DNA from: a virus
Length of the DNA: 30,763 nucleotides
IMG/VR virus record: IMGVR_UViG_3300032242_000320
Coordinates: 1 to 30,763 of that record
Strand: one strand, 5' to 3'
Program-made: the position numbers and the translations under genes
Notes under the pieces: generated by a model
The model's input: only the letters and a program-made list of their open reading frames with translations
What the model was told of the DNA's origin: nothing
Database searches by the model: none
Shown here: positions 1 through 23,178 of the stretch, piece by piece
Numbering within the stretch: the first letter of the stretch is position 1
Layout: every line of letters begins with the position of its first letter

Positions 1-3000
1 CCTACTGCAGCACCTGAGCCTACTGCTATTCGTCAGTTAGATCCTATTGTTGGTAAAGCAGCACCAGCATTGTATGCTGCTGGTTCAACTACTCCACTAA
101 CTGTTACAGAACAAAATTTTTTAGAGAACTGGTCTAAAGTTAAACTGCTTCATGAAAAACTTATGGCTATGCCAAATGATAGAGCAATGGCTGAATATGC
201 TAAATTGCAGCCTGCTTATCAACAAGTTCTTTATAATTACTATGGTGTTGATTATGGTAACAAGCCAAGCAACAGTCAGTTAGTTGATTCACCTGAATGG
301 CGACAAAGCCAGCAAACTAATACACAAACAGACAGTGTATGGAGTTCAATTAAACAAGGACTAATGAGTCCGTTCCGTGCAATTGGTCACGCTGCAGATT
401 TTTACTCGCATATTCTTACCACGCCAATTCACATGCTTGAAAATTCTATTATTAATCATGAATCTTTTTGGTCAAAGAAAAATCTTGAAGCTTCTTTTGA
501 TGGCAAAATGCTTTATGACAATGGTGAATTAAATAAATTAATGAGCCGTTATGGTCAAGAAACTTCTTATGTAGCTACACATCTTCTTGCTGGAGAAACC
601 CCTGGTCAAATTATTCAGCAGTATGGTACAAGAGATCGTGCAGTTCTTGAATCTATTCAAGCTTTGTTTCAAGACCCAGTTAAATTGCAACAGATTATTG
701 GCGAGTATGATCAAGCACGACTGTCACCTGGTCGTGATGCTGCACGCTGGTTAGACAATACACTTGGTATTAATCGCAATCAAGAGTCAGGTTTATTTAA
801 ATTTGGTTCAGGTCTTATTGATGCTAGCGTAAGCATTCTTGCAGATCCATTAACTTATTTAACTATGGGTGGTTCTGCAGTTATGAAGGGCATGGGCGAA
901 TCAGCCAAGCTTGGTGATGCATTATTAAATACTAGAGATGTTGCTGCTCACTTTGCTAATCCTCGTGTTGCAAACTTTTGGGGTCAATATGGCAAAGCAA
1001 TTGATGAACTTAAAGCTGCTAAAATTGCTGGCGATAAAGTTGGAATGGCAAAAGTTGAAAATAAAATTTTAAATACATTCCCTGAACATGGTTCATTAGA
1101 TGAACAACAACTTTATTTATCTCATGCTATGGGTCTTAATACCCCGATGGATTTTGAACATTACTGGAAAAATGTTGAAACTAATATTTCTCCGCTTATT
1201 CGTGGTGCACAAGCTGGGGCTATGTGGCAACGTGAAGGTGCTGCTATTGCTAGAAAAAATCGTGGTATAACACAAGGTTTAAAACAAAAATCTATAGAAT
1301 TTTTTACAGGTAAATTAGATTACGATGCTTTAGATAAAGTAACTGCTAACAGCCTTCTTAATGAAGTTGATAAAATTGGTGCTGCTGAAATTGGTTCAGC
1401 TAAATTTGAAACTTTTGATAAATTAATTGAAGAAAACCGCATGAAAGGTTGGCGTGCAGTTATTCGCCGTCAAACTTCTTATGCTCCAGGATCTGGTTCA
1501 GTTAATGTAACCAATAATGGTGTAGCAAAAACTGCTGAAACATTTCGCCGTCAAGCATTTGTTGCTTTAAATGACAGAGTTATAGCTGATGTTCTTACTC
1601 AGCATTTTCTTGATTCATCTGTAGCTGGAAGAATTAATCTTAAACGAGCTATTGATGAAGCGACATTGCGTCGTTTTGGTGTTCATAACATGGGCACTGA
1701 AGGGGAAAGGTTTATGAATGAAACCCTTAATGCTCATTACGGTGAAGGTGCATTTAGTACTGTAAAAAATCAAGTTATGCCTTCAGCATCTGGCTCTAGT
1801 CGTGCTGGTGATATTATTGAATATAAAGGTCCAGCTAATGCTTTTGGTATTCAAGATAGTATCGCACCACTTAACATGCGAAATATCAAAGAATTTACTG
1901 CAGGTAAATATCGTGGTAGTAATGTTGCTGATGAAGGCAACATGAGTAAAGCATCACGTATTATTGGTGGAGCATTTAATAGTAAAACTGCTAATAACCT
2001 TTCTGATATCTGGGGTATGCTTACTCTTATTCCACAGTTAGGTATTCGTACAGCAATTGATGAAGGTTATCAATTTGCTATGTATATGAATCTTCCTGCA
2101 TTTAAAGAAATCCCTAATACTTTTCGTACTATGCGAGTATTAAAAGCATACAACCCAGAAGAGTATGTTACTGGACCAGCAAAACAATTATTATATAATA
2201 TATTAGGCAAAGTAGTTCAAAGACCATTAGGTCCTGGTAAATTTATTAGCAACGAAGCACGTGTTGCTTTAAAAGAATCGCTTACTCAAGCTAATCTAAA
2301 AACTGGTAAAACTTCAAAAGAAGTTGAAGATCTTTATCATGAAGAATTAATGAAACAAGCATTAGCTAAATATGGTAAAGGTCTTCCAGAATATCATGTG
2401 GAATCTTTAAAAGATCTTGGTAAATTAAATCCATCTGCCTTTGTGGACTCTAGTTCTGCTCGTAGCATTACTGCAAGTTTATCTGGCAAAGATATTTCTC
2501 CAGACAAATCATTACTTAATCATGATCAGCTTAATGCTTCACAAGAAGCAATGGGTTATAGTGTTGTTAAAGATTGGAAAATTAAAGATGCCAGCAGAGT
2601 TGCAGATGCTGATTTAAATTTATATATGTTTCGTAACTTTGTTCGTCATTTTAATTCTAATGCTTTTAAAATTGGTGGCAAAGAATCAAAACAACTTGAT
2701 GCGGCAGCATTGTTTTTAAAGCACAATGGTCTTAAAGATTCTGCAGACTGGCAACGTGCAACAAATGATTTTCTTAAAGGTTTAGGTTTTGAAGATACTG
2801 GATTAACCAAAGTTCTTCCTAATGATGCAGCTAAAGCTAGATTTCAAGAGTTTGTAGATTCAACTCGTCAGTTTGAACAGTATGCAAAACATTCAGATCT
2901 TGACAAAGCAACTTTGTTTGCACAAGATATGTTTGCAAATATTTACCACACATTCCATGGTGGTGCTGAACAGTTTAATAAAGAACTATTAAACTACTTT

Positions 3001-5112
3001 AAACCAGCGTCAAAACCTGGTAGCAAGATTCCTGACCATAGATTACTTTTATCTCAAATGGATTTAGAAAAGTATTCTGATTTAGTTAAAAATCATAAAA
3101 TGACTGGAGAGTTTTATACTCAATTAGATCAGTTGTCTCCTACATTTGCAGAGAACTTACGCAAAAATGGTACTAACAATGCTTACGATGTTATGGGTAG
3201 GCAAACTGATGCTATTTATCGTCAACCTGTAGTTCATCTTCATTACTTGCAGTACCGTCAGCAGTACGCAAAAATTGAAAAGCACATGAAAGATACTCTT
3301 ATCCAAGACATGACTAGCAAGTTTCCTAGAATGTCTCCAGCTGAAATAGATAAGAGAGCTCAAGAACAAGCATCTAGGTATTTTACTGAGCATTCAATGA
3401 ATGATGCCGTACGACATGTTATGAAATTTTCTGATAACCCAGAGATGCATACAATCTTTGCTGACAATGTTCGTGCAGTTGGACGATTCTACCGTGCAGT
3501 TGAAGATTTCCATCGCCGTACTTACCGTTTGCTACGTGACAATGGTGTCGGTGCACTGTATAAGATGCGTTTACAGAACCAAGGCTTTGGTGCTTTAGGT
3601 ACTGTGCATACAGATCAGAATGGTGACCAGTATGTAGTCATGCCATTTGATAATATTATCTACGGTGCAGTTAATAAAACACTAAACATGTTTGGTGGTG
3701 GATTAAACCAACCAACATTTGATAACATTACCTTTAAACTTACTGCAGGTAACCCATCTTTCCAAAATGATGCTGGTATGCCATACCTTAGTGGTCCACT
3801 AGCTGGTGTATCTGTAGTCATGGCTAAGGCTTTGCTTGGTATTCCTGATACTGCTATAACAAACAAGTTATCAAACAACGTTGATAACTTTGCTTTGGGT
3901 AGTTATGGCGACAATGTCAATATTCAAAAAGCAATCATGCCACGTATTGTTCAAAATCTTTGGAATGATCTAAGTCCAGATGAACAATCACAGCAAGAAG
4001 TGTCTGCACTTACTCAGGCTATTTGTTACAGCACTGCACATGGATTAGTGCCAGATGTATCTCAATACCAAAATCCAGATGGTTCTACTAATGTTGATGC
4101 TTATACAAAAGCTAAAGCAGACTACTTAAATAATTTACGCATCTCTGCTCATAACCTTGTTGTTACTCGTGGTTTACTTGGCATGATTATGCCTAGCACT
4201 GTTCAGTTATCTGACAATAAAGATTTGCCAGACATATTAAAAGATAATGGCTTACCGTCTATGCAGTCATCTTTCTATGACATCTTAGATGGCATCGGTA
4301 AAAAGTATCCTGAGATTCAAGACAAGTATGAAATGGCTTTGGCTACTTGGATGGGTAAACATCCTGGACAAGTTGCTTACACTTTGTCAAAAAAGAACAA
4401 AGAAATTGTTCCAATTATGAAGTACAGCAAAGATATGGAAAGTTGGGTTGTTGAAAACAAAAACCTAATTAATCAGTATGGATCTGCTGCTACACTCTTT
4501 GCTCCTAATACTGGCAAGTTTAACCCAGGAACATTTAACTACATGACTGCTGCAGGTTTAGCAGGTAATGTTGACGTTCAAGCATTTTATGATAAAGCTT
4601 TATTACAACAGTCCGTTAATAAGTACTATGACATTAACAATCAAGAAGCTAATCAGTTAATGAACATAGGATTTAATGATTTACAAGTTCGTCAACAGAT
4701 TGTTAATGCTGCAGCAAAAGAACGATTGAAGTTAGAAATTGCAGTGCCAGGATTAAAAGAAGCACTTAGCCCTACCGTATCTACTAAAGATGCTGTTGAC
4801 TTTGTTAACAATGCTCATACGTTTGCTAATGCCTATCCTAACAAGGTTGACGCTAATGTTCTTACAGCATTGAATACTATGTATGGAATCTACACACAAT
4901 TTATTGATCAAGTAGACAATGTTAATTCATACAATTATTCAAATGCTAATGATATTAAAATGAATATGAAGAATCAAGCAGTACAACAAATAGAACAAAT
5001 CATTGCATCTGATCCAACTAAAGTTCTTCAGCAATATTACGATTACGGAATTAAACGAATTATGAATGAACACGTGCGTGATGCTCGTGTCGGCGTGAAT
5101 AGGAATGGATAA
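1..5112 (+). CDS. Giant virion protein, probably internal or DNA-ejection protein (5' partial)
   Basis: The frame is open from the first base of the window, so the gene starts upstream and the in-frame TTG at 70 is unlikely to be the true start. About 1,703 residues are visible. I see no enzyme motif that I trust. The protein is mostly soluble and helical, with a segment near the start (SPFRAIGHAADFYSHILTTP) that could be an amphipathic helix and a Gly/Ala-rich stretch that could touch membrane. It lies before three other soluble structural-type genes and the capsid genes and overlaps the next start (TAATG at 5110-5114). Size and position fit the very large internal virion proteins of podoviruses (T7 gp16 is about 1,300 residues). 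That role is inferred from context. A tape-measure role is less likely because no tail-tube or tail-chaperone genes are nearby. Confidence 0.85.
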   Translation, partial: PTAAPEPTAIRQLDPIVGKAAPALYAAGSTTPLTVTEQNFLENWSKVKLLHEKLMAMPNDRAMAEYAKLQPAYQQVLYNYYGVDYGNKPSNSQLVDSPEWRQSQQTNTQTDSVWSSIKQGLMSPFRAIGHAADFYSHILTTPIHMLENSIINHESFWSKKNLEASFDGKMLYDNGELNKLMSRYGQETSYVATHLLAGETPGQIIQQYGTRDRAVLESIQALFQDPVKLQQIIGEYDQARLSPGRDAARWLDNTLGINRNQESGLFKFGSGLIDASVSILADPLTYLTMGGSAVMKGMGESAKLGDALLNTRDVAAHFANPRVANFWGQYGKAIDELKAAKIAGDKVGMAKVENKILNTFPEHGSLDEQQLYLSHAMGLNTPMDFEHYWKNVETNISPLIRGAQAGAMWQREGAAIARKNRGITQGLKQKSIEFFTGKLDYDALDKVTANSLLNEVDKIGAAEIGSAKFETFDKLIEENRMKGWRAVIRRQTSYAPGSGSVNVTNNGVAKTAETFRRQAFVALNDRVIADVLTQHFLDSSVAGRINLKRAIDEATLRRFGVHNMGTEGERFMNETLNAHYGEGAFSTVKNQVMPSASGSSRAGDIIEYKGPANAFGIQDSIAPLNMRNIKEFTAGKYRGSNVADEGNMSKASRIIGGAFNSKTANNLSDIWGMLTLIPQLGIRTAIDEGYQFAMYMNLPAFKEIPNTFRTMRVLKAYNPEEYVTGPAKQLLYNILGKVVQRPLGPGKFISNEARVALKESLTQANLKTGKTSKEVEDLYHEELMKQALAKYGKGLPEYHVESLKDLGKLNPSAFVDSSSARSITASLSGKDISPDKSLLNHDQLNASQEAMGYSVVKDWKIKDASRVADADLNLYMFRNFVRHFNSNAFKIGGKESKQLDAAALFLKHNGLKDSADWQRATNDFLKGLGFEDTGLTKVLPNDAAKARFQEFVDSTRQFEQYAKHSDLDKATLFAQDMFANIYHTFHGGAEQFNKELLNYFKPASKPGSKIPDHRLLLSQMDLEKYSDLVKNHKMTGEFYTQLDQLSPTFAENLRKNGTNNAYDVMGRQTDAIYRQPVVHLHYLQYRQQYAKIEKHMKDTLIQDMTSKFPRMSPAEIDKRAQEQASRYFTEHSMNDAVRHVMKFSDNPEMHTIFADNVRAVGRFYRAVEDFHRRTYRLLRDNGVGALYKMRLQNQGFGALGTVHTDQNGDQYVVMPFDNIIYGAVNKTLNMFGGGLNQPTFDNITFKLTAGNPSFQNDAGMPYLSGPLAGVSVVMAKALLGIPDTAITNKLSNNVDNFALGSYGDNVNIQKAIMPRIVQNLWNDLSPDEQSQQEVSALTQAICYSTAHGLVPDVSQYQNPDGSTNVDAYTKAKADYLNNLRISAHNLVVTRGLLGMIMPSTVQLSDNKDLPDILKDNGLPSMQSSFYDILDGIGKKYPEIQDKYEMALATWMGKHPGQVAYTLSKKNKEIVPIMKYSKDMESWVVENKNLINQYGSAATLFAPNTGKFNPGTFNYMTAAGLAGNVDVQAFYDKALLQQSVNKYYDINNQEANQLMNIGFNDLQVRQQIVNAAAKERLKLEIAVPGLKEALSPTVSTKDAVDFVNNAHTFANAYPNKVDANVLTALNTMYGIYTQFIDQVDNVNSYNYSNANDIKMNMKNQAVQQIEQIIASDPTKVLQQYYDYGIKRIMNEHVRDARVGVNRNG

Positions 5113-11057: not shown

Positions 11058-11398
11058 TGTCTGCAGGTACTTATAATATTAAAGCTGACCAAGGTTCTAC
11101 TTTTGTATTTAGTTTTACAATTAGTACTAGTGGTACTCCTTGGAATCTTACTGGCTATTCTGCACGTATGCAGGTTCGTGCTAGTACACAAGCTACAACA
11201 ACTGTACTTAATCTTGTTAGTCCAACAGATATTACTTTAACATCTGCTGGTGTAGTTACTGTTACTGTTAATGCAACTACCATGGCTGCTGCTACTGCTG
11301 GTACATTTGTATATGATCTTGAAGTTCAAAGTGGTAGTGGTATAGTTACTAGATTACTACAAGGTAAGTTTATTATTACACCAGAGGTGACACGATAA
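11057..11398 (+). CDS. Fibre/baseplate-type beta protein (BppU-like N-terminal module)
   Basis: A 113-residue all-beta protein starting at a GTG that overlaps the previous stop, with AAGGAG well placed upstream. The sequence YNIKADQGSTFVFSFTIS, then WNLTGYSARMQVR, then FVYDLEVQSGSGIVTRLLQG is typical of the N-terminal immunoglobulin-like module found in phage fibre and baseplate upper proteins, where it attaches receptor-binding parts to the virion. Here it stands alone and is translationally linked to the collagen-like fibre gene (stop and start within TAATG at 11396-11400), so it probably serves as the adaptor for that fibre. The family assignment rests on pattern recognition. Confidence 0.75.
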   Translation: MSAGTYNIKADQGSTFVFSFTISTSGTPWNLTGYSARMQVRASTQATTTVLNLVSPTDITLTSAGVVTVTVNATTMAAATAGTFVYDLEVQSGSGIVTRLLQGKFIITPEVTR

Positions 11399-12840
11399 TG
11401 TCAACAGATATTGTTGTTAGTGAATCTGTAACTGTAGTTAATATTGATGGTACTACTAATGTTAACAATGGTACTACTACTGTAACCATATCCAATGCAC
11501 AAGGTGCACAAGGACCTACAGGAGCTAAAGGCGATACTGGAGCGACTGGTCCCGCTGGTCCTACAGGACCCACAGGGGCAACTGGAGCGACAGGAACAAC
11601 TGGCGCAACTGGCAACGGCATTTCCAGCATTGTGCGCACGTCAGGCACGGGCGCTGCTGGTACGACTGACACGTTTACTATTACGTACACCAGCGGAGCG
11701 ACTACTACTTTTCAAGTTTACAATGGTTCGAATGGTACAAACGGCACTAATGGAACAAACGGAACAAATGGCACTAACGGTCGTGGTATAACTTCCATCA
11801 TTCGCACGTCTGGGACTGGTGCGGCTGGTACAACAGACACTTATACAATTACTTACACAGATGCGTCCACAACCACTTTTAACGTTGTCAATGGTGCTAA
11901 TGGAACGAATGGTACTAACGGTACTAACGGTACTAATGGTACTAATGGTACTAATGGTCAAGGTTACACACAACGTGGTGCATGGGTATCAGGTACAAGT
12001 TATGTACCGTATGATGTTGTTTATTACAATGGCACAACTTATTCTTGTATTCTTGCGACTTCAAGTAATGACCCAACATATACAACATATTGGCAAAAAA
12101 TGGCTCTGGGTATGGGAGCGCCATATGTTTATAATGCTCTAGATACTTATAATGTTGGAGACATTGTTACTCGTAACGGTTCATCTTATTACTGTATTCG
12201 CACTGCAACAGGATTTGCTCCACCAAATACAACTTACTGGTCTTTGCTTGTGTCTGTTGGAGCAACTGGAGCCACTGGCGCAACAGGTCCAATGGGTATT
12301 AATACACCTTCATTTTGGTATGCACCAACAAGTACATATACAACTCCTACATTATCTGCTGGTGTTTTAGTTACTCCATTTTCTGGAATTGCTAATGGTG
12401 TTACTGTTGGAAATAGTAAAACATATTGGGTTGAAGGAATTTTATCTGGATACTTTAGTCATAGTCCAGCAACAACAACAGGACTTCGTATACAAATGCA
12501 AGGTGATGCAGTTGCAAATGTAAATTTTAATTTCGTACAAGCAGGTTTGCTTGGTGCAAGTGCAAGCGGCACCTGGTTAAGTACTAATGAATTTACAAGT
12601 TATATAAATGGAACAACTTCGTGGATTACAGGTGGAACTACTGCTTCATCTGGAACACAAGCACAAGTTACTATTGCTTTTAGAGGAATTTTAAGAACAG
12701 CATCAACAGGTTCTTACTTTTTGCCAAAGATTGGTTTGTCTGCAGTATCAGGTAGTACATGGACAACTACTCGTGATTCTTATTTAGCATTAACTGAACT
12801 TGGTTCTGACACTACTACGTCATTAGGCACGTGGTCATAG
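11398..12840 (+). CDS. Collagen-like fibre protein with chitin-binding-type modules
   Basis: A 480-residue fibre. Order: short beta N-terminus; collagen repeat of about residues 34-72 (GPTGAKGDTGATGPAG); a beta module beginning GISSIVRTSGTGAAG; an NGT triplet array (109-129); a second copy of the beta module (GITSIIRTSGTGAAG); a second NGT array (165-188); two carbohydrate-binding-like modules (WVSGTSYVPYDVVYYNGTTY and YNALDTYNVGDIV) that resemble CBM5/12; a short second collagen tract (GATGATGATGPMG); and a beta C-terminal domain. Such proteins form trimeric fibres that bind cell-surface polysaccharide. It is likely attached through the preceding small beta protein. GC content rises visibly around 11500-11720, suggesting that part of the gene came from elsewhere. 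Confidence 0.85.
   Translation: MSTDIVVSESVTVVNIDGTTNVNNGTTTVTISNAQGAQGPTGAKGDTGATGPAGPTGPTGATGATGTTGATGNGISSIVRTSGTGAAGTTDTFTITYTSGATTTFQVYNGSNGTNGTNGTNGTNGTNGRGITSIIRTSGTGAAGTTDTYTITYTDASTTTFNVVNGANGTNGTNGTNGTNGTNGTNGQGYTQRGAWVSGTSYVPYDVVYYNGTTYSCILATSSNDPTYTTYWQKMALGMGAPYVYNALDTYNVGDIVTRNGSSYYCIRTATGFAPPNTTYWSLLVSVGATGATGATGPMGINTPSFWYAPTSTYTTPTLSAGVLVTPFSGIANGVTVGNSKTYWVEGILSGYFSHSPATTTGLRIQMQGDAVANVNFNFVQAGLLGASASGTWLSTNEFTSYINGTTSWITGGTTASSGTQAQVTIAFRGILRTASTGSYFLPKIGLSAVSGSTWTTTRDSYLALTELGSDTTTSLGTWS
11722..11784 (+). repeat. Nine-base repeat array, first NGT tract
   Basis: Seven in-frame nine-base units encode Asn-Gly-X triplets, mostly NGT. The synonymous codons are mixed (AAT/AAC, GGT/GGC/GGA, ACA/ACT), so the DNA units are not identical even though the peptide is. 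Confidence 0.85.
11890..11958 (+). repeat. Nine-base repeat array, second NGT tract
   Basis: Seven full units and one partial unit encode Asn-Gly-X triplets, mostly NGT. The later units are nearly identical in DNA (AATGGTACT or AACGGTACT), which points to recent expansion by slippage or recombination, unlike the first tract. Confidence 0.85.
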
Positions 12841-13950: not shown

Positions 13951-14235
13951 ATGAATAAGCCTGATCCTCGTCTTAAACGTGCTGGTGTATCTGGTTACAA
14001 TAAACCTAAGCGTACACCTAGCCATCCTACTAAGTCTCATGTTGTTGTGGCTAAAGAAGGTAGTCAAGTTAAGACGATTCATTTTGGGCAACAGGGTGTC
14101 TCTGGCTCTCCTAAGAAATCAGGGGAGTCAGAGGCATACCGTAAACGTCGTGAAGCTTTTAAAGCACGACATGCAAGTAACATCGCTAAAGGCAAAATGT
14201 CTGCAGCGTATTGGGCAGATAAGGTGAAATGGTAA
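13951..14235 (+). CDS. Conserved phage protein, DUF6321-like
   Basis: A 94-residue basic protein. The order is PDPRLKRAGVSGYNKPKRTP, then SHVVVAKEGSQVKTIHFGQQ, then YRKRREAFKARHASNIAKGK and a C-terminal MSAAYWADKVKW. This pattern is one I recall from a conserved phage family of unknown function (DUF6321-type); the family name is from memory and should be treated as tentative. There is no strong ribosome binding site directly before the ATG, so coupling to the upstream gene is likely. The stop overlaps the next start (TAATG at 14233-14237). Confidence 0.75.
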   Translation: MNKPDPRLKRAGVSGYNKPKRTPSHPTKSHVVVAKEGSQVKTIHFGQQGVSGSPKKSGESEAYRKRREAFKARHASNIAKGKMSAAYWADKVKW

Positions 14236-14474
14236 TGGCTGTTGGTTTACAGTTTAATTTAAATCGTGTCATTGGTAATACCATGACTGGTCCTACTTGG
14301 TATGACGCACAGAAAGCAGCCAATGTCTGGGCTAATACTACTACTTACTTAGATCTTCTTGGTGCTCTTAATTACAAAGCTGGCACTTCAGGTCTTGGTC
14401 TTAATGCTGTATGCAATCTTCTTGCTGGTACAACCAATTTAGATTCTGATGGTGCATCAGAGTTCTTTAGTTAA
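14235..14474 (+). CDS. 79-residue hypothetical protein
   Basis: I prefer the ATG at 14235, which overlaps the previous stop and has AAGGTG at better distance than the ATG two codons earlier (14229). The product begins MAVGLQFNLNRVIGNT and continues TWYDAQKAANVWANTTTYLD, then LGLNAVCNLLAG, with an acidic end. It looks like a small soluble helical protein with one Cys. It directly precedes the 902-residue gene and may be its partner in the virion, but nothing in the sequence proves this. Confidence 0.7.
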   Translation: MAVGLQFNLNRVIGNTMTGPTWYDAQKAANVWANTTTYLDLLGALNYKAGTSGLGLNAVCNLLAGTTNLDSDGASEFFS

Positions 14475-14482
14475 GGATAGTA

Positions 14483-17191
14483 ATGTCTGATGTTCAACCA
14501 GCTCCTAGTCCTTCTCCAGAAGCTTCACCACAACCGTCAACTAAACCAGAAGAAAACAAAGGATTCTGGGGACATGTCGCTGACGTTGCCGATTTTTTAT
14601 TTGCTACTAAATCTCTTGGTCGTGTTCTTACTGGCGAAAGTGGATGGGGAGATCTGGCTAATCTGGGGATTACTGCTGCCTCCTTCTTTATTCCTCCTTT
14701 ACGTCTTTTAAAGTTTGGTGCTAAACCACTAGAATCTATTATTGCTCATGCTGCTGAAGTTGCTGCATCTGATACTGCTAGTGCTGCAGCAAAAAGTGCT
14801 GCTGAAAGAACTGCAGAGAATGCTCGTTACCTTTTAGAGAACCCAGAGAAACATGAACAACTAGCACACATTGCTAGTGACCCATCTAATTCAGAAATTC
14901 CTAAATTAAATAATCTTCATGAAGAAGCAGATCATTTGCTAGAACATGGTACTGTACCTGAGCCACCTGTTCGTAGGGTTGGTGAATTATCTAAAGATGA
15001 AATTGAACCTAGCATTGCTAATGAAATGGATAGATTCAAAACAGAACCAAAAGAAATTGTTGTTAAAACTGACAGAACTATTGCTACACCTAAAGGTGTT
15101 GCTGAAAGATTTGGTAAAGTTTCTGGAAGTGGAGATGAAACTAAAAATGTTACTCGTGGTTTATTAGAAGAAGAAAATGCTCCTAAAGATTTATTAAAGT
15201 CATCAGTTGTAGAAAAAGACAGAGCTGACTATCCTTTCTTAACTCAAGAAGATATTGCACAGTATCGTGCTGATGGTAGATCTGAAGAATATATTGCTAA
15301 CATGAATCGTTTGGAAGAATCTCTTGGTGGTAGCAAAACTACTGAACCAAGGAATGTTAATCCTTATGCAGAAAAATATCCACATGTTCATCCAGATGTT
15401 GTTGCTAAAATTTTAACTGGTGAAATTGATGAGACTGGCAAACTTATTGTTAGTAGCATTGCTGAAAAGAAACTTAAAGCTTTAAATGAAGCTGGCAAAC
15501 GTGCAGGTTATACTGCTCCTACTGAAGTTAAAACTACCGAAGCATTAACTGCTGCAGAACAAAATAAACTTAATACCGTTAATGCAGAGTTTCCTGTAAC
15601 TGCTGATGGTAAACCTATTACTCGCCGTATGGAAGATAGTATGCCTGAAGATATGCGTACTGGTAATTTAAAAGTTGATCGTACTGCATGGTTATTGTCT
15701 GAGTCTAAGAAGCTGGAAAACTTCTTAAAAAAATCTCCTGACAATGCTGGTGAAATCCGTGTCACTAAAGATTTGTGGAACAAGCAAGCTAATGAACTGC
15801 AGTTAAAGATGGATCCAGATGAACGTATTCAAGCTAATCAACTTGCCGATGATTTAACTAAACGTAATCTTGCTGACTATCAAGCAGGTAAAGATGCTAC
15901 TAAACGTGGTGTTGTTGATTTTGATGTTGCTAAAGAAACGGACATTAATAAACTTACTGATGCTCGTAAACAATTAATTGAAGACTGGCGTGCAGAAACT
16001 GATCCTGATTTAAAGAAGGCTATTGCTTTTACTGGTAAAAAAGTTTCTGCTCGTATTGAACAGTTAAACAATCCTGCTGTTGAAGGTTCTGTTCTAACTA
16101 AAATTCGACCATTGAATATAAGCCATTCAGATCCTTCTTACAATAGTTTAATTAATAATACTATGAAAGATGTTATTGATAAACACATTGGCGAAACCGC
16201 AACACTTCCACCTATGTCAAGCAAAGCTTTAAAAAGATTTGAAGAACTAGGGTTAGAGCCACCTTCAGATGTTGTACCTGCAATTGAAGAGGTAGTTAGA
16301 AACCAAGCAATGGATGAAGTTATAAGTTCTAAAGAATATAAACAAGTTGCATCTAAAATTGATGAACACTTTGGTGGCACTATTGATACTGTAGATCCAT
16401 CAAAAGCTGATTTGCTTCGTGAACAAACTAAAGCATTACAAGATAAAATAAAAATTGAATTACTGCATACCGCAACATTAAAAGAATTATTACGAGATCC
16501 TAATAAAGTTGCAGAATTAAAAAATATTGAAAATCAATTAAATGAAATTAGAAATGCAAAAATTTGTTTAGCAATTAACGGTCAAGATTTAGTAAAAGTT
16601 TTTAAAGATGGAATATTTAGAACTCAATTTGAAACAAACACATCGGGTGGATATTTAAATCATCAAATGCGCAGCGATGTAGAAGCTATTCAACATGACG
16701 TTTGGATGGATGCAAGTCCTAGTGAACGACCTGTGTATGGTTACTTAGCAAAAGATGAATCACAAATTGTACATTCAAATGTAGATCCTTATGGTCATTA
16801 CAGAATTGTTTTTAAACCACATGTTAGGTCTAGAGCAACTTTTACTAATGGCGATTCCTTGGGAAATTTTAATCGTTTAATATCTTATCTTCCAGTACCA
16901 CTTGAAGGTGAATTAAAACCAAATCAAATTTTTCAAGCATTAACTACACATGATTTAAAAAATGTTTTTAAAAATGTTTCAGTTATTAATGATGTAAATT
17001 ATTCTGAAGCACAAATTTTTGGACCACTTAAAATTGAAGATATTGAATCTGTTTACTTTACAACTCCGCCAGAAAAATGGATGGCTAATGAACTAGATCA
17101 ATTAAAAGAAATTTTTAAAACACACAATATTCAATTTAATATGCATGGTAATGTTCCTGGTTCTACTACTGCTTCTACTTTGGACGGATAA
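14483..17191 (+). CDS. Large virion-block protein with C-terminal ADP-ribosyltransferase-like domain (candidate ejected effector)
   Basis: A 902-residue protein with a clear ribosome binding site (AAGGA). It starts with a Pro/Ser/Gln-rich tip, then a hydrophobic or amphipathic segment (about residues 27-85, including FWGHVADVADFLFATKSL and ITAASFFIPPLRLLKFG), then a long charged helical middle (about 85-690). The C-terminal domain (about 705-880) has the order: R713 in GIFRTQFET; RPVYGYL (749-755); YRIVFKPHVRSRATFTNGDS (ending at S792); and YSEAQIFGPL with E842 and Q844. That order resembles the R-S-E layout of ADP-ribosyltransferases and the DUF3626-type family. Base composition becomes more AT-rich from about 16430. 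A virion gene position suggests delivery with DNA, as for T4 Alt. Fold assignment is from motif spacing only. Confidence 0.75.
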   Translation: MSDVQPAPSPSPEASPQPSTKPEENKGFWGHVADVADFLFATKSLGRVLTGESGWGDLANLGITAASFFIPPLRLLKFGAKPLESIIAHAAEVAASDTASAAAKSAAERTAENARYLLENPEKHEQLAHIASDPSNSEIPKLNNLHEEADHLLEHGTVPEPPVRRVGELSKDEIEPSIANEMDRFKTEPKEIVVKTDRTIATPKGVAERFGKVSGSGDETKNVTRGLLEEENAPKDLLKSSVVEKDRADYPFLTQEDIAQYRADGRSEEYIANMNRLEESLGGSKTTEPRNVNPYAEKYPHVHPDVVAKILTGEIDETGKLIVSSIAEKKLKALNEAGKRAGYTAPTEVKTTEALTAAEQNKLNTVNAEFPVTADGKPITRRMEDSMPEDMRTGNLKVDRTAWLLSESKKLENFLKKSPDNAGEIRVTKDLWNKQANELQLKMDPDERIQANQLADDLTKRNLADYQAGKDATKRGVVDFDVAKETDINKLTDARKQLIEDWRAETDPDLKKAIAFTGKKVSARIEQLNNPAVEGSVLTKIRPLNISHSDPSYNSLINNTMKDVIDKHIGETATLPPMSSKALKRFEELGLEPPSDVVPAIEEVVRNQAMDEVISSKEYKQVASKIDEHFGGTIDTVDPSKADLLREQTKALQDKIKIELLHTATLKELLRDPNKVAELKNIENQLNEIRNAKICLAINGQDLVKVFKDGIFRTQFETNTSGGYLNHQMRSDVEAIQHDVWMDASPSERPVYGYLAKDESQIVHSNVDPYGHYRIVFKPHVRSRATFTNGDSLGNFNRLISYLPVPLEGELKPNQIFQALTTHDLKNVFKNVSVINDVNYSEAQIFGPLKIEDIESVYFTTPPEKWMANELDQLKEIFKTHNIQFNMHGNVPGSTTASTLDG

Positions 17192-17194
17192 ATA

Positions 17195-17368
17195 ATGGAT
17201 AAATTAATTGCAATACGTTTAGATAAAGTTAAATTATTTTATACTAAAAGCGATAGCAATGGATACCCTATGGGTTATCTTTTAACACCTGGTGGTACAA
17301 AAAGTCCTGTTGCTTATATAGATTCATTAACTAAAAGTGGAACATTCAAACCAGTGAAAGGTAAATAA
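17195..17368 (+). CDS. 57-residue small protein after the candidate effector
   Basis: The ATG at 17195 comes three bases after the 902-residue gene and the TAA at 17366-17368 overlaps the next start (TAATG). The product MDKLIAIRLDKVKLFYTK, then SNGYPMGYLLTPGG and a basic tail, looks like a small beta-rich protein. Its AT-rich, A-ending codon use matches the end of the preceding gene more than the following tail gene, so the two may have arrived together. It could be an accessory or protective partner of the candidate effector, or simply a small virion protein. There is no direct evidence for either. Confidence 0.7.
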   Translation: MDKLIAIRLDKVKLFYTKSDSNGYPMGYLLTPGGTKSPVAYIDSLTKSGTFKPVKGK

Positions 17369-22366: not shown

Positions 22367-22535
22367 ATTCTACTTCGTCTTCTGTTCTATGACCACAGAA
22401 ACAACTACCGTTATTCCTAGGCGAGTTAGCACACGCCCAGTGTAACTGCCTAGCATTTAATAATGATAATCTTTTATTATTTTTTTTGTATGCAGTGTAG
22501 TAGTCAGCAGCACTTTTACATAGATTACAAATCAT
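22365..22535 (-). CDS. Small Cys-rich zinc-binding-like protein
   Basis: The ATG at 22535 has AAGGA seven bases upstream and lies inside the end of the sigma-like gene, so I prefer it to a longer upstream frame. The 56-residue product starts MICNLCKSAADYYTAYK and ends with CANSPRNNGSCFCGHR. C3, C6, C35, C45, C47 and H49 could bind one or two zinc ions. It resembles small actinophage zinc-ribbon proteins without known role. It is the last gene of the left-pointing operon and its stop sits in the terminator T-run. Confidence 0.75.
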   Translation of the reverse strand: MICNLCKSAADYYTAYKKNNKRLSLLNARQLHWACANSPRNNGSCFCGHRTEDEVE

Positions 22536-23178
22536 CTTCTGTTCCTTTACCATAACTATAATCTTCATCTTTGAATGGCTTAGTACCACCCACTAAACGA
22601 ACCATTTTATTTAATGCACGGTTAGCTTGCATCATGATTGCCTTGTCTGTTGTATCAGACTTCATAGCATCTACTAGTTCTGTACCTGTTAGTTCTTGTC
22701 CATAGTATAGATCAACTAATATCTGTTCACGGTCATTTAGTTTATCAAAGGCTGACTTAACGTCAGCACTAAATGCCATCCAGTCTCCAGACTCAGCCAA
22801 CGCTTTAGTAGACCTACCACCTGTAGATAAAGTGTTAGCAATCTTAGACCAGTCGTCAGATAGTACAGCAGGAATCATGACCTTGATAAACTGTTTGTCA
22901 TAAAAGAAATTATCAGAAGGATCATAGCCAGACTTAATGGCTTTTTCTTTTAAACAATAATCAAGTGCAGCATTACGTAAAGATCTAGCAACCAGTTTAT
23001 CTACATCTTTACTGTCTTCATGTTCTTTATTCCATGAGTCTAGCTTTACTGGATGCTCCGCAAACCAAAGCCACAACTCCTGCTGTACATCTTCTCTCTC
23101 TACCATTGGATATTTACGACCAAATTCTGCAGCAATCTGCTTGACCATAAGATTATACCCATCATAGAAATCTTCCAT
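22525..23178 (-). CDS. Sigma-70-like transcription factor
   Basis: A 217-residue protein starting within the previous stop (TAATG on the minus strand). The N-terminal half, VEREDVQQELWLWFAEHPVK and LVARSLRNAALDYCLKEKA, resembles sigma region 2 of small sigma factors. The C-terminal half, FDKLNDREQILVDLYYGQEL then TGTELVDAMKSDTTDKAIMM, resembles the region-4 helix-turn-helix. Other phages encode such proteins to redirect host RNA polymerase, often to late genes. I cannot see recognisable late promoters, so its targets are unknown. A simple HTH regulator is the alternative. Confidence 0.7.
   Translation of the reverse strand: MEDFYDGYNLMVKQIAAEFGRKYPMVEREDVQQELWLWFAEHPVKLDSWNKEHEDSKDVDKLVARSLRNAALDYCLKEKAIKSGYDPSDNFFYDKQFIKVMIPAVLSDDWSKIANTLSTGGRSTKALAESGDWMAFSADVKSAFDKLNDREQILVDLYYGQELTGTELVDAMKSDTTDKAIMMQANRALNKMVRLVGGTKPFKDEDYSYGKGTEDDL

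What the first reader, a model, noticed from the sequence alone, without database searches (positions are those of the whole stretch)
14483..17191. Candidate virion-delivered ADP-ribosyltransferase in the tail block
Seen: a 902-residue protein in the structural block has a membrane-active-looking N-terminus, a long helical middle and a compact C-terminal domain with R713, a FTNGDS motif ending at S792 and SEAQ with E842/Q844. Known: ADP-ribosyltransferases use an R-S-E order, and phages such as T4 inject them (Alt) to modify host RNA polymerase and translation. Inference: this phage may inject a toxin-like enzyme with its DNA. The usual catalytic Glu position here would be Q844 unless E842 serves, so it may be a variant or a different reaction.
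Basis: partly seen in the sequence, partly recalled or inferred. Interest (0 to 1): 0.72.

Follow-up and report, generated by a model that had tools for sequence, protein, structure and literature searches.

The report
Swappable phage effector with ADP-ribosylating enzyme
A phage protein that probably travels in the virus particle has a fixed front part and an exchangeable tail end; here the tail end looks like an ADP-ribosylating enzyme with its own small partner gene, while relatives carry other ADP-ribose-related modules, or nothing, in the same place.

Summary
The 902-residue ORF is real. Residues 693-889 form a DUF3626-type ADP-ribosyltransferase (ART) domain: Pfam E 1.1e-9; AlphaFold pLDDT 85; nearest solved folds SopF, Z 13.1, and DarT, Z 10.7.

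The context is the larger finding. The gene fills an exchangeable slot before the tail-tube gene. Of 19 distinct phage proteins sharing its N-terminal module, 12 carry NADAR, DUF4326, DprA/SLOG-like or A1S_2505 modules in varying combinations, 6 carry no recognised cargo, and only the window carries the ART. The ART stretch is AT-rich (30% GC; flanks 39%) and is followed by a 57-aa gene (17195-17368) of an undescribed small family: all 47 profile hits adjoin an ART gene, none lie in 199 other loci.

Best reading: a virion-borne polymorphic effector whose ART arrived with a partner (inhibitor or co-factor). Delivery, catalysis, target and partner role are inferred, not shown.

The parts
14483..17191 (+). 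902-aa effector ORF: N-terminal module, helical spacer, C-terminal ART
   Evidence: same slot filled by relatives
14567..14839 (+). conserved N-terminal module (residues 29-119), proposed virion-loading/ejection part (inferred)
   Evidence: profile match in 19 distinct phage proteins; no PHROG match (residues 1-180), no Pfam or NCBIfam match to this part of the protein
14840..16558 (+). helical, E/K-rich spacer (residues 120-692); part (364-528) resembles the end region of cargo-less L022 protein
   Evidence: helical character judged from sequence, not modelled
16559..17149 (+). DUF3626-type ART domain (residues 693-889)
16574..16576 (+). I698 codon, end of strand 1, proposed first residue of an I-Y-E triad
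   Evidence: column V28/I22 of 76; strand 693-698; mapping to SopF inferred
16619..16621 (+).
   Evidence: K61, R3 of 76
16736..16738 (+). Y752 codon, proposed second residue of the triad (strand 2)
   Evidence: Y74, F2 of 76; strand 751-756
16856..16858 (+). S792 codon, conserved Ser of the RxTxTxGDSL motif
   Evidence: S68, T6 of 76
17006..17008 (+). E842 codon, proposed catalytic Glu (strand 5)
   Evidence: E73 of 76; strand 841-845
17195..17368 (+). 57-aa partner ORF, stop codon overlapping the tail-tube start (TAATG)
   Evidence: profile built from five other ART neighbours hits it at E 5e-9
16073..17367 (+). AT-rich stretch (29-31.5% GC) holding the end of the spacer, the ART and the partner: proposed acquired cassette
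   Evidence: GC by segment
17354..17370 (+). GTGAAAGGTAAATAATG, nearly the same as the junction in L011 and L012: end of the slot, likely ribosome-binding site of the tail-tube gene (inferred)
13951..14235 (+). 94-aa upstream gene (phrog_7595), left marker of the slot
14229..14474 (+). 81-aa upstream gene, 95-96% identical in L011 and L012
17368..18294 (+). tail-tube-type gene, right marker of the slot

Best explanation
The protein is a polymorphic effector of an actinobacterial podovirus-like phage. A constant N-terminal module probably loads it into, or ejects it with, the particle; a helical spacer follows; the C-terminus is exchangeable cargo. In relatives the cargo is a combination of NADAR, DUF4326, DprA/SLOG-like and A1S_2505 modules, or nothing. 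In this phage it is a DUF3626/SopF-like ART, predicted to take NAD+ and transfer ADP-ribose to a host macromolecule early in infection, with E842 as catalytic Glu and I698/Y752 in the NAD pocket. The ART came as an AT-rich cassette with a 57-aa partner gene that most likely holds the enzyme inactive in the cell that makes the virions, or otherwise serves as its co-factor. Shown: the ORF, the ART-type homology and predicted fold, residue conservation, the exchangeable slot, the composition break and the ART-partner linkage. Inferred: virion delivery, catalysis, target, and the partner's role.
For: ART: Pfam DUF3626; profile of 62 phage ART domains hits SopF structures 7dn8/7dn9 at E 7.8e-9 and 1.4e-7; model pLDDT 85.4, pTM 0.84; Foldseek SopF 5e-9, DarT 6e-5; VIA Z 13.1 and 10.7. 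SopF is described as an ADP-ribosyltransferase with an I-Y-E triad (passages). Slot: near relatives L011 and L012 (tail tube 88% and 82%) share 63% and 62% of the first 150 residues but have other C-termini; 19 distinct proteins mapped; L111 and L271 share 645 identical residues of 677 and differ by a DprA/SLOG-like insert. Cassette: GC 42% in the N-terminal module, 29.8% in the ART, 29.0% after it, 38.8% and 39.6% in the flanks. Partner: 47 hits among 32,660 ORFs, 43 just downstream and 4 upstream of an ART gene, none in 199 non-ART loci. Virion context: 13 of 50 other DUF3626-ART proteins carry MuF.
Against: No proteomics or activity. The N-terminal module matches no known virion-delivery family and its model is poor. 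The window ART is a long branch (1.79) with no close kin and lacks an Arg that 70 of 76 domains have (position 711), so activity could be lost. The partner is absent from 27 of 80 viral ART loci, from 5 of the 7 other phage and plasmid ART loci examined (L003, L004, L005, L007, L010), and from all 9 ART loci of actinobacterial genomes. Partner-like stretches lie inside three ART polypeptides (L217, L220, L261), which sits badly with a pure immunity role. In the window partner the usual LARGYWE is SGTFKP. The window ART is the only ART among the 19, so the exchange to ART rests on one phage.
Confidence: 0.6

Rival explanations
1. The ART acts in the producing cell or against superinfecting phages, expressed late with the structural genes, and is never injected.
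For: Gene sits in the late block; a tightly linked small partner recalls toxin-antitoxin or immunity pairs.
Against: The same N-terminal module carries quite different cargo in relatives, which points to a shared delivery or assembly role; other DUF3626 ARTs are fused to head proteins.
Confidence: 0.2
2. The C-terminal domain keeps the ART fold but is catalytically dead and serves as a structural part or as a decoy or sponge for NAD+ or ADP-ribose signals.
For: Long branch; loss of the Arg at 711 kept by 70 of 76; single occurrence in this slot.
Against: Y752, Y770, R784, S792, E842 and Q844, each kept by 68 or more of 76, are retained.
Confidence: 0.12
3. The domain modifies nucleic acid, as DarT does, rather than protein as SopF does: the phage writes ADP-ribose on DNA or RNA.
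For: DarT structures are the second-best folds (Z 8.3-10.7); relatives carry NADAR in the same slot, and NADARs reverse guanine ADP-ribosylation (abstract).
Against: SopF is closer by sequence profile and fold and is reported to modify a protein (passages). Phage and YbiA NADARs did not protect against DarT1 in vivo in that study (passage). DarT's partners DarG/NADAR are not adjacent here; the adjacent gene is the 57-aa partner.
Confidence: 0.25
4. The partner is not an inhibitor but a co-delivered subunit, chaperone or substrate adaptor.
For: Partner-like stretches inside three ART polypeptides; a partner upstream of the ART in 4 to 6 loci; no partner beside the 9 bacterial-genome ARTs.
Against: Mostly a separate small ORF directly downstream (43 of 47), the arrangement that Jamet et al. 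2017 take as immunity for MuF toxins (passages).
Confidence: 0.4

Closest known systems
SopF and the DUF3626 family (PF12294)
   Same: Sequence profile and predicted fold; acidic and aromatic triad residues in matching strands (SopF triad from a passage).
   Different: SopF is a Salmonella type III effector activated by host ARF (passage). The window domain is fused behind a phage-specific N-terminal module and followed by a partner gene.
MuF polymorphic toxins of temperate phages (Jamet et al. 2017, PMC5576092, passages seen)
   Same: Constant N-terminal part, variable C-terminal enzyme, small ORF right after the gene, predicted delivery with phage DNA.
   Different: No MuF domain in the window protein; gene sits before the tail-tube gene, not after the portal; the exchanged modules found here are NAD/ADP-ribose-related or unassigned.
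Phage polyvalent proteins and the viral NAD-ADPr network (Iyer and colleagues, PMC5512222 and PMC9503650; passages and two sections seen)
   Same: [quoted passage not shown] ARTs predicted to be packaged.
   Different: I saw no description there of this N-terminal module, this slot, or the 57-aa partner; neither DUF3626 nor SopF occurs in the searched text of those papers.
DarT DNA ADP-ribosyltransferase
   Same: Second-best fold, Z up to 10.7.
   Different: Sequence identity 6-11%; not paired with DarG or NADAR here.
T4 Alt
   Same: Idea of a virion-borne ART (recalled; also in passages).
   Different: Alt is described as R-S-E class (passage); this domain is not.

Membership tests
DUF3626 / SopF-like ART | match to the family profile | tested here: met
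   Pfam 38.2 bits against a cut-off of 27; SopF found by profile at E 7.8e-9
DUF3626 / SopF-like ART | ART fold | tested here: met
   pLDDT 85.4; VIA Z 13.1, rmsd 3.5, 187 aligned
DUF3626 / SopF-like ART | I-Y-E catalytic triad | tested here: inconclusive
   Y752 and E842 conserved and in strands 2 and 5, I698 in strand 1; no residue-by-residue superposition on SopF was made
DUF3626 / SopF-like ART | NAD-dependent ADP-ribosylation | not testable with these tools
   needs an assay
R-S-E class ART (T4 Alt, VIP2 type) | conserved Arg in strand 1 and R-S-E order | tested here: not met
   strand 1 is 693-698 and holds no Arg in the window; R713 column K61/R3 of 76. At column 697 an Arg stands in 32 of 76 relatives, but not in the window
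T4 Alt-like injected ART | present in virions and injected | not testable with these tools
   needs virion proteomics
MuF polymorphic toxin | MuF domain | tested here: not met
   no MuF match at E up to 1
MuF polymorphic toxin | variable C-terminal effector on a constant N-terminus | tested here: met
   (constant part is not MuF)
MuF polymorphic toxin | small ORF directly downstream | tested here: met
   57 aa, 17195-17368
Polyvalent proteins | several effector domains in one virion-embedded polypeptide | tested here: inconclusive
   one recognised effector domain in the window, up to three in relatives; virion location untested
DarT/DarG or DarT/NADAR system | operon with DarG or NADAR antitoxin | tested here: not met
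   next genes are the 57-aa partner and the tail-tube gene; the partner matches no family tried

The most novel reading that the evidence does not exclude
One podovirus-type delivery chassis ships interchangeable NAD/ADP-ribose tools. Relatives ship modules that remove, bind or process ADP-ribose (NADAR, DUF4326, DprA/SLOG-like), and this phage has replaced them with an enzyme that writes ADP-ribose, acquired with a small dedicated partner of an undescribed family that accompanies many virion-type DUF3626 ARTs and keeps them silent until delivery.
Probability: 0.4. Interest if true: 0.8.

Novelty: new variant of a known kind. Interest (0 to 1): 0.66.

Why it matters
If true, it adds a delivery chassis, other than MuF, for phage effectors, with cargo drawn largely from NAD/ADP-ribose biology, the currency of several bacterial anti-phage systems. 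It links a bacterial effector fold (SopF) and a defence fold (DarT) to a broad set of phage ARTs, corrects the active-site assignment to an I-Y-E type, and supplies a 57- to roughly 100-residue partner family that can be tested directly as an ART inhibitor or co-factor. It also gives a simple rule for finding further cargo: read the gene just before the tail-tube gene.

Tried and rejected
R-S-E assignment with R713: rejected on conservation and strand position. My own first guess that the strand-1 Arg corresponds to N699 (note, from the 7-sequence alignments) was dropped: in the 76-domain alignment that column is A697 (R 32, A 26 of 76).

Searches that gave little: the whole ORF in viral contigs found no relative; A2 had no stretch to search with; the ART domain in plasmids gave one Hymenobacter record; phmmer of the ART domain alone against the PDB gave no convincing hit; the window partner by tblastn in phages gave no match even at E up to 1, the L237 partner none, the DSL-LC01 partner only itself; the partner profile had no PHROG match in 16 of 16 members and no convincing PDB match (best E 0.034); the DprA/SLOG-like profile had no PDB match. 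I called the A1S_2505 module macro-like in notes; no result supports that (PDB best E 0.046; NCBIfam names it A1S_2505), so I withdraw it. No fold search was run with the N-terminal model (pLDDT 64).

Rows dropped before counts. One search kept 80 of 197 confirmed loci. Of 88 ART domains, 12 identical ones were dropped (76 aligned). The structure alignment used 62 of 69; the Pfam tally 50 of 68 loci other than the window (13 left out for size, 5 more by me). Truncated or duplicate N-terminal-module ORFs were left out of the 19; L268 and L280, near-identical to L107 and L104, were mapped but not counted. The slot census counted 93 distinct tail-tube rows: 16 with the N-terminal module, 50 without, 27 undetermined; the sample is enriched by searches made with that module, so this is no frequency. 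Of the six 'no cargo' proteins three had a Pfam scan without match (L022, L104, L105); L113, L277 and L287 were tested only with my own profiles. L271, L276 and L284 were likewise assigned by my own profiles; of these only the L276 DprA/SLOG segment was also matched to PHROGs. Partner counts: the 47 hits include the five seeds and some identical loci; the tally is 53 of 80 viral loci, and by my count 52 with the larger ORF set.

Full report
The observation. The ORF at 14483-17191 is open from ATG to stop, 902 aa. The record is a 30,763-base virus record. Its tail-tube-type protein matches 31 phage records, 29 of them Streptomyces phages, and all three bacterial-genome relatives found are Actinomycetota, so an actinobacterial host is likely. 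No integrase was seen among the 29 window proteins scanned with PHROGs, but the record may be a fragment.

The domain. Residues 706-793 match Pfam DUF3626 (E 1.1e-9, cut-off passed), and 699-874 match phrog_8314. Phage homologues include DSL-LC01, MissE2, Tierra (annotated capsid maturation protease and ADP-ribosyltransferase), D29 gp2 and SP-15. A four-sequence alignment found 197 viral loci, of which 80 were kept. In 76 distinct domains the conserved positions, in window numbering, are E717 (74), R730 (76), Y752 (74), Y770 (73), R784 (71), S792 (S 68, T 6), E842 (73) and Q844 (73). R713 is not among them (K 61, R 3). The window has Ile at 711, where 70 of 76 have Arg. The AlphaFold model from 62 sequences has pLDDT 85.4 and pTM 0.84; strands 693-698, 751-756 and 841-845 carry I698, Y752 and E842. 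The profile finds the SopF structures; Foldseek and VIA rank SopF first and DarT second. A review describes SopF as an ADP-ribosyltransferase with an I-Y-E triad like that of diphtheria-toxin-like enzymes (PMC10333799, passages), and another paper places DUF3626 in SopF (PMC6682159, passages). I therefore place the domain in the SopF/DUF3626 group and reject R-S-E. The residue mapping to SopF is inferred from strand order; no letter-by-letter alignment was made.

Virion context of the family. Of 50 other DUF3626-ART proteins scanned, 46 match DUF3626, 13 also carry Phage_Mu_F, and single members carry portal or minor-capsid domains; 5 carry a second ART type. Nine of 396 actinobacterial genomes hold a match.

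The slot. In near relatives L011 and L012 (tail tube 88% and 82%) the same place holds proteins of 1037 and 1114 aa that share 63% and 62% of the first 150 residues with the window protein but end differently. More relatives were gathered with the 94-aa gene, the tail tube and the N-terminal module. Nineteen distinct proteins carry the module. Cargo by profile: DprA/SLOG-like in 9 (PHROG 768, DprA-like, in each of the three segments tested), NADAR in 5, DUF4326 in 5 (Pfam seeds), A1S_2505 in 2 (NCBIfam), ART in the window only, no recognised cargo in 6. L111 and L271 differ by a DprA/SLOG-like insert in otherwise nearly identical proteins, and L113, L109 and L107 form a series of none, one and two modules on a related backbone. 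In the census, 50 of 66 determinable tail-tube rows lack the module altogether. Iyer et al. [quoted passage not shown] A1S_2505 has no assigned function here.

The cassette. GC is 42% in the N-terminal module, 36% in residues 151-530, 31.5% in 531-692, 29.8% in the ART and 29.0% in the gap after it, against 38.8% upstream and 39.6% downstream. The other complete members end on the first base of the tail-tube start codon, except L276 (4 bases short); the window ORF ends 177 bases before it. That gap is filled by a 57-aa ORF whose last codons and junction nearly match those of L011 and L012.

The partner. A profile from five small ORFs beside other ARTs, none from the window, hits the window ORF at E 5e-9. 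Over 287 loci and 32,660 ORFs it makes 47 hits: 43 within 250 bases downstream of an ART gene and 4 within 700 bases upstream; none fall in 199 non-ART loci (seeds and some duplicate loci included). A partner-first scan gave 12 loci: 11 have an ART gene next to the partner, and the twelfth starts at a contig edge; 9 of the 12 are contigs already known, 3 are new. Against a universal pairing: 27 of 80 viral ART loci lack it and three ART proteins contain a similar stretch; none of 9 bacterial-genome ART loci has it within about 1.5 kb. Jamet et al. [quoted passage not shown] I give inhibitor and co-factor similar weight.

How it most likely works. Shown by computation: homology, predicted fold, conserved residues, slot exchange, composition break, partner linkage. 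Inferred: the N-terminal module brings the protein into or through the particle; the ART uses NAD+ in the new host; the partner restrains or assists it. The target is unknown; protein (as SopF) and nucleic acid (as DarT) are both open.

Literature. DUF3626 occurs in 2 papers of the library, both about Salmonella; DUF4326 in 7. Searches for polyvalent/NADAR/SLOG/ART/virion, MuF toxins and NADAR/DarT listed no paper whose title or shown abstract describes this slot or partner; those lists were capped and subscription journals are largely missing.

Noticed in passing
17195-17368: Unlisted 57-aa ORF right after the ART gene, member of a small family linked to DUF3626 ARTs in phages.
   Followed up: yes
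   Followed up: partly
1-5112: A protein of at least 1,703 residues (open at the window start) without a PHROG, Pfam or NCBIfam match; 24% identity to a 1,764-aa protein of phage ct2KA10.
   Followed up: no
11398-12840: Tail-fibre-like protein with collagen repeats and CBM_5_12 carbohydrate-binding modules; it differs strongly between near relatives.
   Followed up: no
L189:4614-5135: The ORF after this ART matches the partner profile three times (reference list), so the partner may occur as a repeat.
   Followed up: no
L228 / L291:3-2096: One polypeptide with two matches to the ART profile (residues 138-320 and 492-653).
   Followed up: no
22525-23178: Sigma-factor-like gene (phrog_354, E 1.1e-13) on the minus strand of the window.
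   Followed up: no
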